DNA of 40,228 nt, from contig CAINMU010000058.1 in assembly GCA_903850885.1 (NCBI GenBank), positions 1 to 40,228 on the forward strand, given 5' to 3'. The translations under genes were made by a program, and so were the position numbers. This stretch comes from an uncultured Opitutia bacterium (GTDB taxonomy: Bacteria; Verrucomicrobiota; Verrucomicrobiia; Opitutales; UBA953). This document shows positions 34,693 through 38,245 of the stretch, in pieces (within the stretch, counting starts at the first letter, position 1; each line of letters opens with the position of its first letter). The notes beneath the pieces are model-generated. The model saw only the letters and a list, made by a program, of their open reading frames with translations. It ran no database searches and was not told the origin of the DNA.

Positions 34693-35367
34693 ATGAAGTC
34701 GGCCCCAGCTCCGAAAAAGACCGTGGTGGTCATCGAGGATCAGACCGCGATTCGGGAGCTGGTCATGGAAATGCTTGAATCGCGCGGCAAATACTCGGCC
34801 GTCGGTTCGACGGCCGATGGCGCCGAAGGCGTCGCGTTGGTGCTTAAACTTAAACCCGATGTGCTCATCCTCGATATTCTGCTCCCTGGCATCAGCGGCA
34901 TCGAAGTCCTGCGACGACTCCACCACACGTTGCCCGCTCTGCGGGTGTTGATTTTTTCCGCCAAGACAGCAAAGCAACTTGCCCACGGTCTGCTTCAAGA
35001 AGGGGTCTGCGGCTTCGTGAACAAGAGCGCCCCGCTCTCCGAACTTCGCGAAGCCCTGGACGCGGTGGCTGAAGGTAAGAATTGGTTTACCCCCTCCTAC
35101 CATAAAGCCATCATCGACGCCCAACAATCCTCCGAAAGTCAGGTCGATGAAAAAGGCGGGGCGCTTTCTGGTCGTGAACGCGAGATCGCCGTGCTCTTAG
35201 CCCAAAGTCATTCCAGTAAAGAAGTTGCGAACCGACTCAACATCAGCGCCAAGACGGTCGAAAATCATCGCACCAATCTCATGCGCAAGCTCGGCGTGCA
35301 CGATGTCGCCGGGGTCATCCGCTACGTGATCCGCCAAGGTCTCTACGACCCTTCCGAGCAACCATGA
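34693..35367 (+). CDS. LuxR/NarL-type response regulator, second of a tandem pair
   Basis: A 224-residue response regulator closely similar to the preceding one over its whole length but without the basic N-terminal extension. The receiver has E15-D16, phospho-acceptor D61 (LILDILLPG), S89 and K111 (FVNKSAP). The DNA-binding domain repeats the SHSSKEVANRLNIS and ENHRTNLMRKLGV segments. I use the ATG at 34693, directly preceded by CCCC, over an in-frame ATG at 34630 that would overlap the first regulator gene. Its stop overlaps the start of the downstream HEXXH protein gene by 4 bp (ATGA), so the three genes form one operon. It most likely arose from a tandem duplication. The partner kinase is unknown. 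Confidence 0.92.
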   Translation: MKSAPAPKKTVVVIEDQTAIRELVMEMLESRGKYSAVGSTADGAEGVALVLKLKPDVLILDILLPGISGIEVLRRLHHTLPALRVLIFSAKTAKQLAHGLLQEGVCGFVNKSAPLSELREALDAVAEGKNWFTPSYHKAIIDAQQSSESQVDEKGGALSGREREIAVLLAQSHSSKEVANRLNISAKTVENHRTNLMRKLGVHDVAGVIRYVIRQGLYDPSEQP

Positions 35368-36074
35368 TCGGTAAAATCGCGGTGGGGCTCCTGCTATCGG
35401 CCAGTCTTGCCGCCGCCGAAGCTCCCGCCGCTCCGAGTTATGAAGTACGCGACCTCCAAGGCTGGTCCGTCCACGTCCGCAGCGAACTCCTGACGCCAGA
35501 AAAGAAAGCCCTCACCGAGGCCCGCCTATTGATGGTTGCCCAACAGCTGGTCGAAATCGTTCGCGTCGTGCCCGCCGCGGCCGTCACGGAGCTGCGGAAG
35601 ATTCCCCTCTGGATTTCGCCCCCCTACCCCAAGATTCCGCAACGCGCTGAATACCATCCTGGGGCCGATTGGCTGAAGAAAAACGGGCGCGACCCCGCCA
35701 TGGCCAAGGGCGTCGAATTCACCAACTTCGATATTCTCGACAAAGAAGTGCTGCGGATGCCGATGCTATCCTTGCACGAGCTCGCCCACGGCTACCACGA
35801 CCGCGTCCTCGGGGCCAATCAGCCGGACATCAAAGCCTGCTTTGCCCGCGCGGTAGCCAATAAATCCTACGACAAAGTTTCGCGCAAAAACTGGCAGGGT
35901 AAGGTCACCCCCAACGTCAAAGCCTATGCCATGACCAACCCGCATGAATTCTTCGCCGAAACCAGCGAAGCGTTCTTCGGCGAAAACGACATGTTCCCGT
36001 TCAATCGCAAGGAGCTCGAGCAACACGACCCCGAAACCGTGACCATGCTCAAGAAGATCTGGCACGGTGAATAA
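35364..36074 (+). CDS. secreted putative HEXXH zinc peptidase
   Basis: A 236-residue protein with a signal peptide (MIGKIAVGLLLSASLAAAEA) and a zincin-type motif HELAHGYH with H138, E139 and H142. About 50 residues on, NPHEFFAETSEAFFG (E195, E199) could supply the third metal ligand, as in gluzincins of the lethal-factor or M34-like kind. The central part carries WISPPYPKIPQRAEYHPGA. I do not recognise a named family. It overlaps the upstream response regulator by 4 bp, so it is translationally coupled and probably under the same control. Possible roles are cell-surface remodelling or extracellular proteolysis. Activity is inferred only from the motif. Confidence 0.7.
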   Translation: MIGKIAVGLLLSASLAAAEAPAAPSYEVRDLQGWSVHVRSELLTPEKKALTEARLLMVAQQLVEIVRVVPAAAVTELRKIPLWISPPYPKIPQRAEYHPGADWLKKNGRDPAMAKGVEFTNFDILDKEVLRMPMLSLHELAHGYHDRVLGANQPDIKACFARAVANKSYDKVSRKNWQGKVTPNVKAYAMTNPHEFFAETSEAFFGENDMFPFNRKELEQHDPETVTMLKKIWHGE

Positions 36075-36119
36075 AGACATCAGCGCCCTTGTTCGACTGC
36101 CTTAAGGGCGGGGCGCGAT

Positions 36120-36137
36120 GACATCTCATCCGATGTC
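36120..36137 (+). other. hairpin after the HEXXH peptidase gene
   Basis: GACATC and GATGTC form a perfect 6-bp stem around TCATCC, followed by TTTA, 46 bases after the stop of the peptidase gene. It could be the terminator of the regulator operon. Confidence 0.4.
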
Positions 36138-36146
36138 TTTAGGAAG

Positions 36147-36173
36147 GGACACCACCACGTGCTGTCCTCTTTT
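36147..36173 (+). terminator. hairpin with T-rich tail after the HEXXH peptidase gene
   Basis: GGACACCAC and GTGCTGTCC pair (one C-C mismatch) around CAC, followed by TCTTTT. It sits just before the REPIN-like repeats and is a better terminator candidate than the preceding hairpin. Confidence 0.45.
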
Positions 36174-36180
36174 GCCTCAG

Positions 36181-36234
36181 GTAGGGTTGAGCGCCCTCGC
36201 TCAACCGCGGCTGACCAAGGGTGGTCAGCCCTAC
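36181..36234. repeat. REPIN-like element 1: two inverted REP units (type a/b)
   Basis: Two 26-base units face each other around GC. Each unit reads GTAGGG, a 7-bp stem, loop CCCT, the paired stem, then CC: stem TTGAGCG/CGCTCAA on the plus strand and CTGACCA/TGGTCAG on the minus strand. A 55-bp segment (36184-36238) recurs exactly at 36411-36465. The reading frames crossing it are by-products of the repeat. Confidence 0.85.
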
Positions 36235-36246
36235 CAGATGCTTCGG

Positions 36247-36346
36247 GTAGGGCGGGCTCTCCGAGCCCGCCGTCGAGTCGGCCGACCTCCCCACTCGACA
36301 TCCGTATCTCCGTCCGCGAACGGACGGCTCGGAGAGCCGTCCCTAC
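36247..36346. repeat. REPIN-like element 2: two inverted REP units with a structured centre
   Basis: The left unit is GTAGGG, stem CGGGCTC/GAGCCCG, loop TCC, then CC. The right unit, read on the minus strand, is GTAGGG, stem ACGGCTC/GAGCCGT, loop TCC, then CC. The 50-base centre holds GTCGAGT/ACTCGAC arms and a perfect CCGTCCG-CGAA-CGGACGG hairpin (36310-36327) that overlaps the right unit, so alternative folds are possible. Confidence 0.85.
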
Positions 36347-36407
36347 CAAAGACCGCAGCATCCTATCCGGTTTCCGGTCTCCCTTTGAATCAAACCCTCT
36401 GCCTTGG

Positions 36408-36461
36408 GTGGGGTTGAGCGCCCTCGCTCAACCGCGGCTGACCAAGGGTGGTCAGCCCTAC
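36408..36461. repeat. REPIN-like element 3: copy of element 1
   Basis: Same layout as element 1, differing by one base in the left head (GTGGGG instead of GTAGGG). The 60 bases between elements 2 and 3 hold nothing recognisable. Between 36075 and 36473 no convincing gene is present. Confidence 0.85.
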
Positions 36462-36473
36462 CAGACGCTGACC

Positions 36474-36722: not shown

Positions 36723-37331
36723 CTAAGTGCGGTCGCCGAGAATCGGATGACCGTGCTGGGAGGTCTGGACGCGTAGCTGGTGCGTGCGCCCGGTGCGAGG
36801 CTCCAACCGGATCAATGACAGCGGGATACCCTCTCCGGCCGCCCGCTCCCATTGGTACATCGTGATCGCGGCCAAGCCGTCGCCGCTGGCGACACCCGAA
36901 CGCACGCTATTACCAGGACCTTTGGACTTCACCAACATATCCTGCCAGGTGCCGCGCGGGGTCCGCAGCCCCCGCCCTTTGACCAGGGCGATGTATTTCT
37001 TGGAAACTTTCGATGTCGCAAAAAGTTTGCGGACGATATCCGCTAACGCTTCGTCCAGCGCGAGCAAGAGCACGCCACTGGTCGGAGAATCGAGCCGGTT
37101 GAGCAGATAAACGCGCCGGATGCCCCCCTTGCCGTCGCGGATATGAAAGGCTTCCTCTTCGTGCGAATAATTACCTTCGATCAATACGGTGCCTTTCTCG
37201 TTAGCCTCATTCGGATTAGGATGTGCCAAGATACCGTCAGGTTTTTCGACCGCGAATAAGCCGCACTCGTGCTGCTGCACCACGCGCACGCCACGGCCAA
37301 AAGGAATCCAATCAAAGGGGGCGGCACACAT
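36723..37331 (-). CDS. RluA-family RNA pseudouridine synthase, truncated by an in-frame TAG
   Basis: Converts specific uridines of rRNA or tRNA to pseudouridine. The visible 202 residues carry the catalytic NRLDSPTSG (usual HRLDxxTSG, with the catalytic Asp), KKYIALVKG and the RLEPRTGRTHQLRVQ motif, ending at HPILGDRT followed by TAG where the family has a conserved tyrosine (GDxxYG). The frame continues intact for 83 codons after it. There is no S4 domain at the N-terminus. I use the ATG at 37331, which shares its A with the last base of the TonB-like gene's stop (TGATG), over an in-frame ATG at 37400 within that gene. It may be a recent nonsense mutation, a sequencing error, or an amber-readthrough case. 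Because the C-terminal end packs against the active site, the truncated product may be inactive. Confidence 0.8.
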   Translation of the reverse strand: MCAAPFDWIPFGRGVRVVQQHECGLFAVEKPDGILAHPNPNEANEKGTVLIEGNYSHEEEAFHIRDGKGGIRRVYLLNRLDSPTSGVLLLALDEALADIVRKLFATSKVSKKYIALVKGRGLRTPRGTWQDMLVKSKGPGNSVRSGVASGDGLAAITMYQWERAAGEGIPLSLIRLEPRTGRTHQLRVQTSQHGHPILGDRT

Positions 37332-38245
37332 CAGCGGTAATGAAAACTGACGGTGACCGTATCCTCTTCGCCGAAGAGGGCGACCATATCTGGGCGCCAA
37401 GCATCAAAGGGGGCCGGTGCCATGACCGAATCTTTGCAAGCAAAGGCCATGATATTGGGCACGTCTTTCCATAGGATCTGGGCATCGGTGACGGTGCCAT
37501 CGCGATGTAGTTTGAAACGCACCACGACCCGACCTTGCGCCATGGTCTCAAAACGCGAGCGATCGATGATATCCCACCAGCTGGACTGGATGGCTTCCAT
37601 CATCCGCTGGGTATAATCCCCATAGATGCTGAAACGGGCATCGATCGCGATGACTCCGGCCCGGCCGACCCCGATATTATTCTTTAAAATCAGGCCTGTC
37701 GTACCCGAGGACACGGTGGCCTTGGGACGCTCCGGGTCGCGCGGTGCCGCGGAGGGTGGAGCGAGCGGCTTGGCCTCGACGGGTTTGCCAGGCATGGGGC
37801 CGACCGCGGCCGAAGCCGTCCCGGCCTGCCCTTCCGCCGAAACCGATTCGGGAGAATCAATCGAACGGGGTTTACCTTGGGCCACCCGAATCGTATTCTC
37901 GGTCCCAAGTGATTTTGGTAAGGATGATTTGGTCGGCGTCTTTTCGGGCACGGGCTGAGCGGCGACCTGGTTGCGCGACGCAACAAAGGGAGCGACCAAG
38001 GGCTGGGCACGATTCGCCGCGCTATTGGTCTCCGCATAACGCAGGACTGGCGGTAGCCGGGTTTCGGCAAACGGAACGGGGGCCGTCAACACCTGAACAG
38101 GATGTACCACCAAAACCGGATGATGAAAGACGGTCGGCAAGACCCAGATCAAAACGAGGTGCAGGCACAAAGAAATCCCGGCCGCAAGGAGGGCGGCTTG
38201 GAGATCAACGGGCTGGTCATCGCGCACGGTCTCGAACCTATGCAC
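37331..38245 (-). CDS. TonB-like energy transducer
   Basis: A 304-residue periplasm-spanning protein: a single membrane segment near residues 15-37 (LAAGISLCLHLVLIWVLPTVF), a long Pro/Ala/Ser-rich linker (about 60-200) and a C-terminal TonB-fold domain (about 205-304: YTQRMMEAIQSSWW, VVVRFKLHRDGTVTDA, then APFDAW). Such proteins couple the proton gradient to outer-membrane receptors or act like TolA. The GTG at 38245 is chosen; there is no ATG upstream in frame before the previous gene's stop. It follows the unknown secreted protein gene by 33 bp, and its stop overlaps the pseudouridine synthase start by one base. No ExbB/ExbD genes are in the window. Confidence 0.75.
   Translation of the reverse strand: MHRFETVRDDQPVDLQAALLAAGISLCLHLVLIWVLPTVFHHPVLVVHPVQVLTAPVPFAETRLPPVLRYAETNSAANRAQPLVAPFVASRNQVAAQPVPEKTPTKSSLPKSLGTENTIRVAQGKPRSIDSPESVSAEGQAGTASAAVGPMPGKPVEAKPLAPPSAAPRDPERPKATVSSGTTGLILKNNIGVGRAGVIAIDARFSIYGDYTQRMMEAIQSSWWDIIDRSRFETMAQGRVVVRFKLHRDGTVTDAQILWKDVPNIMAFACKDSVMAPAPFDAWRPDMVALFGEEDTVTVSFHYR

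What the first reader, a model, noticed from the sequence alone, without database searches (positions are those of the whole stretch)
36181..36461. Cluster of three REPIN-like elements built from six covarying REP units
The sequence holds six copies of one layout: GTAGGG (once GTGGGG), a 7-bp stem, a CCCT or TCC loop, the paired stem, then CCG. They are paired head-to-head as three elements. Stem bases differ between units but always in compensated pairs (TTGAGCG/CGCTCAA, CTGACCA/TGGTCAG, CGGGCTC/GAGCCCG, ACGGCTC/GAGCCGT), while the head, the loop and the CCG tail stay fixed. This covariation shows selection on structure, as in REP/REPIN elements mobilised by RAYT (TnpA-REP) transposases in other bacteria. 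I know of no named family in this lineage; it may be undescribed.
Basis: partly seen in the sequence, partly recalled or inferred. Interest (0 to 1): 0.75.

Follow-up and report, generated by a model that had tools for sequence, protein, structure and literature searches.

The report
REPIN repeats with matching RAYT genes
This stretch holds three tiny hairpin-forming mobile repeats of a known kind (REPINs); hundreds of copies lie between genes of this Verrucomicrobiota genus, and each repeat family has its own matching transposase gene, which makes the group a good test bed for how such enzymes recognise and move their repeats.

Summary
Six hairpin units form three head-to-head pairs: A 36180-36235, B 36246-36347, A 36407-36462. 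The unit is a GTAG tag plus a 9-bp stem (GG+7/7+CC) and a 3-4 nt loop, so the "fixed" GG and CC belong to the stem. The genome carries three intact RAYT genes. One (C73, 155 aa, above the NF047646 cut-off) is bracketed by A units. Across 41 REP-flanked RAYTs of the family, 13 REP types need 13 changes on the RAYT tree (shuffles at least 26): each REP type has its own RAYT clade. Type B has cognate RAYTs in sister species; none was found in this assembly. Sister species show gain and loss at the window's own site, and at four other sites one REPIN family replaces another exactly at the GGTAGGG boundary. Verdict: GTAG REPs/REPINs with RAYTs, a known kind already reported in Verrucomicrobia (Opitutus terrae, 2013). 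These are new members of it. The boundary-precise family swaps and a shared outer motif are the less expected part.

The parts
36180..36235 (.). REPIN type A, first copy: unit TTGAGCG (36180-36207, +) and unit CTGACCA (36208-36235, -), 2 bp between the 9-bp stems
   Evidence: DNA fold -22.4 kcal/mol, z -7.1
36246..36347 (.). REPIN type B: unit CGGGCTC (36246-36272, +) and unit ACGGCTC (36321-36347, -) with a structured spacer
   Evidence: fold z -4.6; cognate RAYTs in sister genomes L057, L061
36407..36462 (.). REPIN type A, second copy: unit TTGAGCG with head GTGGGG (36407-36434, +) and unit CTGACCA (36435-36462, -)
   Evidence: present in G043, absent in G027
36107..36132 (+). decayed REP unit of family E (consensus GTAGGGATGCGATGACATCGCATCCG)
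   Evidence: sequence comparison with family E units and with the better preserved copy in G027
36143..36168 (+). decayed REP unit of family C1 (consensus GTAGGGACAGCACCACGTGCTGTCCT)
   Evidence: sequence comparison with family C1 units; shared with G043, absent in G027
35364..36074 (+). upstream neighbour gene, M90-like metallopeptidase, ends toward the cluster
   Evidence: Pfam PF06167 at its cut-off; used as the orthology anchor
36723..37400 (-). downstream neighbour gene, pseudouridine synthase, converging on the cluster; interrupted by an in-frame TAG
   Evidence: Pfam PF00849, 81.4 bits; sister sequence

Best explanation
The cluster is three GTAG-type REPINs of two families (A, B, A) plus two decayed REP units, piled up in one convergent intergenic gap. 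They are short non-autonomous elements. As single strands they fold into two GTAG-tagged hairpins. Each family is recognised by its own RAYT (TnpA-REP, a Y1 HUH nuclease) through the GTAG tag, stem and loop. The RAYT would cut and rejoin next to the tag, at a CT-containing outer motif, and so spread copies between genes. Type A is served by the intact RAYT on contig C73 of the same genome. Type B is an orphan in this assembly, with its RAYT in sister species. Shown here: copies, pairing, intergenic bias, REP-flanked RAYTs, one-to-one association of RAYT clade and REP type, gain and loss between sister species. Inferred from the known biochemistry of TnpA-REP: the cutting and strand transfer. 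Not shown: movement today, or any benefit to the host.
For: At least 147 units genome-wide with covarying stems. RAYT1 passes the NCBIfam REP-transposase cut-off (86.1 against 80 bits), matches the solved TnpA-REP 4er8 (2e-07) and is bracketed by A units, its stop codon lying inside the 3' unit. RAYT2 is bracketed by F units and RAYT3 by C1/C2 units. 41 REP-flanked RAYTs: 13 types, 13 changes on the tree, shuffles at least 26. B units bracket RAYTs in G047 and G066. 220 of 239 sampled units lie outside predicted genes at a coding density of 0.81. Presence/absence at the window's own site: G043 lacks the first A and B; G027 lacks the second A. Outer motif with information at -8 to -2; TnpA-REP of E. 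coli cuts at CT beside GTAG-tagged hairpins (PMC8266576).
Against: No excision or insertion was observed. No B-type RAYT was found in this assembly. The outer motif is weak apart from the G at -1. Clean empty sites were rare: most differing sites also have other spacer changes. Genes were called with a crude codon-usage finder on stretches chosen for holding REPs.
Confidence: 0.88

Rival explanations
1. Host regulatory hairpins (bidirectional transcription terminators or mRNA-stabilising ends) kept by selection on expression, not mobile elements.
For: Enriched between convergent genes: 56 of 142 intergenic units against 31 of 176 gene pairs. Very stable folds.
Against: No terminator-like site with a T run in the region. 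Fixed GTAG tag, strict heterodimers, cognate RAYTs and presence/absence between sister species are not predicted. A secondary effect on transcripts remains possible.
Confidence: 0.06
2. The units are mobile but spread or swap mainly by homologous recombination or gene conversion between copies, with RAYTs playing no part now.
For: Families with no RAYT found in this assembly (B, D, E) are abundant. Several genus members have tens of units and no RAYT hit (G031, G040, G070). Neighbouring REPs could offer short homology.
Against: Swaps need exchange at ends that share only about 7 bp. REP type tracks RAYT clade. Intact RAYT1 and RAYT2 are kept beside their units.
Confidence: 0.1
3. A local tandem duplication with no wider meaning.
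For: The two A copies in the window differ at a single base.
Against: The same A dimer recurs on many other contigs, across the genus and beside RAYT1. The two window copies have separate presence/absence histories.
Confidence: 0.01

Closest known systems
GTAG-tagged REP superfamily, above all the Opitutus terrae families such as GTAG-17 head-to-head dimers (Di Nocera et al. 2013, PMC3733652)
   Same: GTAG tag, short perfect stem, 2-4 nt loop, head-to-head heterodimers 1-2 bp apart, several families per genome, intergenic and convergent bias, phylum Verrucomicrobia
   Different: Stem and loop sequences could not be compared (their figure is not held); here the families are tied to RAYT clades across a genus
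Group 3 TnpA-REP/REP systems (e.g. Stenotrophomonas maltophilia REPtron; PMC8266576)
   Same: GTAG plus perfect palindrome with a 3-nt loop, REP-flanked RAYT gene, several REPtrons per genome
   Different: Different phylum; activity not tested; group placement of the RAYTs not computed here
REPINs of Pseudomonas fluorescens SBW25 (Bertels and Rainey 2011, PMC3116915)
   Same: Two inverted REPs that fold together, dispersed, each class linked to a RAYT
   Different: Here the two REPs of a pair have different stems, and type A has almost no spacer
REP 'orthoswitch' (Nunvar et al. 2013, PMC3686654)
   Same: Different REP classes at corresponding places in related strains
   Different: The orthoswitch concerns REPs flanking a RAYT gene, explained by mutation of those REPs and later spread; here dispersed REPINs are replaced by members of other families at boundary-identical sites

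Membership tests
GTAG REP superfamily | 5' GTAG tetranucleotide followed by a palindrome of variable sequence | tested here: met
GTAG REP superfamily | high copy number, mostly intergenic | tested here: met
   at least 147 copies; 220 of 239 sampled units outside predicted genes
[quoted passage not shown]
   same-family head-to-head pairs dominate among neighbours; folds
REPIN | moves as a unit (excision or insertion) | tested here: inconclusive
   presence/absence and swaps between sister species, no direct intermediate
REPtron / RAYT (TnpA-REP) | Y1 HUH transposase of the RAYT family | tested here: met
   NF047646 above cut-off for RAYT1 (RAYT2 at 75.8, below the cut-off of 80); PF01797; PDB 4er8; HLH motif and Tyr in the alignment
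REPtron / RAYT (TnpA-REP) | gene flanked by the cognate REPs | tested here: met
   clade-REP association
REPtron / RAYT (TnpA-REP) | cleavage of single-stranded REP at CT beside the GTAG hairpin | not testable with these tools
   only a weak outer motif that can hold CT was seen
Opitutus terrae family GTAG-17 | same stem and loop consensus | not tested
   the consensus is in a figure that is not held; only the spacing (1-2 bp, head-to-head) agrees
Intrinsic transcription terminator | G+C-rich hairpin followed by a T run | tested here: not met
   0 sites found
Described Rfam RNA family | match to a covariance model at gathering score | tested here: not met
   only a chance-level hit, 21.9 bits against 100 needed

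The most novel reading that the evidence does not exclude
REPIN families exchange bodies in place: RAYTs act on fixed GGTAG/CTACC ends that carry a common outer motif, so a REPIN of one family is replaced by one of another at the same chromosomal slot, like cassettes in a socket. If so, REP positions are older than the REPs that fill them.
Probability: 0.2. Interest if true: 0.65.

Novelty: new member of a known kind. Interest (0 to 1): 0.42.

Why it matters
How RAYTs find and move REPs is still open. This genus offers a natural experiment: 13 REP types with their own RAYT clades across the family, several of them together in one small genome, orphan types, a freshly broken RAYT in a sister species, and sites where one REPIN family has replaced another at a precise boundary. 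That makes recognition (which residues read which stem and loop) and mobility (insertion into a shared target against exchange at fixed ends) directly testable. As a finding about the window alone it is ordinary.

Tried and rejected
A first genome pattern was mis-spaced and found nothing, and a later type-B pattern was mis-typed; neither counts as evidence. Terminators and Rfam RNAs as explanations of the hairpins were dropped. Exact whole-genome counts per type were not obtained because listings are capped. Placing the RAYTs in the published groups or subclasses was not attempted, since the reference sets are not at hand. Stem-by-stem comparison with the O. terrae families was not possible (figure not held). 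The alternative that the swaps are assembly errors was weighed: swap 1 lies at a contig end and is weak; swaps 2-4 are internal, with both flanks collinear in the sister genome.

Full report
OBSERVATION. Two details change. First, folding shows a 9-bp stem, GG+7 pairing with 7+CC, so the unit is GTAG + stem + 3-4 nt loop, and the constant GG and CC belong to the stem. Second, each pair is a heterodimer: A = TTGAGCG with CTGACCA, B = CGGGCTC with ACGGCTC. In sampled stretches of this genome the same pairings recur (exact forms: A 19, F 9, B 7, D 6, plus variants), and homodimers are rare. Chance is excluded: 224 of 369 GTAGGG occurrences carry a perfect 7-bp stem, against 0.26% in shuffles, and covariation over 12 distinct stems is far outside shuffled and slid controls.

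GENOME AND LINEAGE. The window is contig C58 of a 2.34-Mb MAG. A covariance model of the unit finds at least 147 copies, with only 150 candidates scored. It finds the unit in 53 of 79 family genomes and in 82 of 286 genomes, 46 of 137 genera, of the class. Named relatives are Verrucomicrobiota: a Lac Pavin MAG whose contig length equals that of sister G043's C54, and an 'uncultured Opitutae' MAG whose contig length equals that of G052's C13. The taxonomic naming is therefore by inference. The same genome carries further GTAG families (C1-C3, D, E, F). By a crude codon-usage gene finder, units lie outside genes in 220 of 239 cases, and convergent gaps are enriched, as reported for REPs elsewhere (PMC3733652). 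The window cluster itself lies between an M90-like gene and a converging pseudouridine synthase gene.

TRANSPOSASES. Three RAYTs are intact in this genome. RAYT1 (C73, 155 aa) passes the NCBIfam REP-transposase cut-off and resembles the solved TnpA-REP 4er8. It is bracketed by A units, with its stop codon inside the 3' unit. RAYT2 (C149) is bracketed by F units, and RAYT3 (C21) by C1/C2 units. In sister genomes RAYTs are bracketed by A, B, C1-C3, D, E, F and other units. On a tree of 49 RAYTs the 41 REP-flanked ones need 13 changes for 13 REP types, one above the minimum; 300 label shuffles need at least 26. The extra change is type B in a second genus. So REP type follows RAYT clade, as expected if each enzyme serves its own repeat. 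No B-type RAYT was found in this assembly. It may be lost or lie in an assembly gap, since several contigs end in REPs.

HISTORY OF THE SITE. In sister G043 (97% identical neighbouring protein) only the second A is present; in G027 (93%) only the first A and B are present. The window's cluster is thus a mosaic of separately gained or lost elements, with two decayed units of families E and C1 beside it. Of 29 clusters compared with G043, 11 have the same family content and 18 differ under a strict unit caller; some of the differences are mutated heads rather than missing elements.

FAMILY SWAPS. At four places the flank aligns up to GGTAGGG and a different family follows: B against A (own C41, G043 C66), E against D (C95, C59), A against D (C105, C54), A against D (C17, C47). 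The last three are internal to contigs with both flanks collinear; the first lies at a contig end. All families share a weak outer motif, about TGYCTYRG, before GTAG, which can hold the CT that known TnpA-REP enzymes cut (PMC8266576). Either all families insert into the same target, so that a vacated site is refilled, or the enzymes exchange bodies at fixed ends. The data do not decide. G043 carries a RAYT1 with a 122-bp frame-shifting deletion and otherwise near-identical sequence, and in the sampled stretches it has more D and fewer A units than this genome. The samples were not random, so this is only a lead.

COMPARISON WITH THE KNOWN. Every defining feature of a GTAG REP, a REPIN and a REPtron that could be tested was met, apart from direct movement (inconclusive) and cleavage (not testable). 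Di Nocera et al. (PMC3733652) already report Opitutus terrae GTAG families, with GTAG-17 head-to-head pairs only 1-2 bp apart; type A here has that spacing (2 bp between 9-bp stems). One RAYT per REP type and several REPtrons per genome are also known (PMC6006769, PMC3686654). What I did not find in the papers read is family replacement at boundary-identical dispersed sites; the nearest idea is the 'orthoswitch', which concerns REPs at RAYT genes. The search of papers was limited to open-licence texts.

VERDICT. Real, correctly interpreted, and a new member of a known kind. The interest lies in the genus as a test system and in the swaps, not in the window as such.

Noticed in passing
L044:66 (-), L163:5108 (-), L173:9619 (-), L035:4529 (-) against G043 loci L196, L191, L185, L159: At orthologous sites the flank is conserved up to GGTAGGG and then a REPIN of another family follows in the sister species (B/A, E/D, A/D, A/D).
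   Followed up: partly
L041:597-741, L036:193-351, L041:12708-12816, L051:19188-19296: Nested composites: a type B pair sits between or beside the two halves of a type A pair in a fixed order (TTGAGCG, CGGGCTC, ACGGCTC, CTGACCA), complete at the first two places and with an outer A unit missing at the other two.
   Followed up: partly
window about 36358-36390; about 14 further sites in the sampled own stretches: A second repeated tract (about CCAGCNAATCATCCGGTCTCCGGTTTCCCTTTGAGT) recurs close to REP units.
   Followed up: partly
window 36723-36725 (-): The pseudouridine synthase gene has an in-frame TAG stop where sister G043 has a sense codon; the frame continues beyond it.
   Followed up: partly
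L083:2930-3343 (G043 C54): The sister species' copy of RAYT1 has a 122-bp frame-shifting deletion with near-identical sequence elsewhere, so it was broken recently.
   Followed up: yes
L097-L100, L103-L105: Two RAYT clades of the genus carry no recognisable GTAGGG unit nearby; they may use another repeat.
   Followed up: no
G006 and G008 (same family): 13 and 32 weak RAYT-like matches, mostly in larger frames of about 200-470 aa, suggesting an expanded, different Y1 family there.
   Followed up: no
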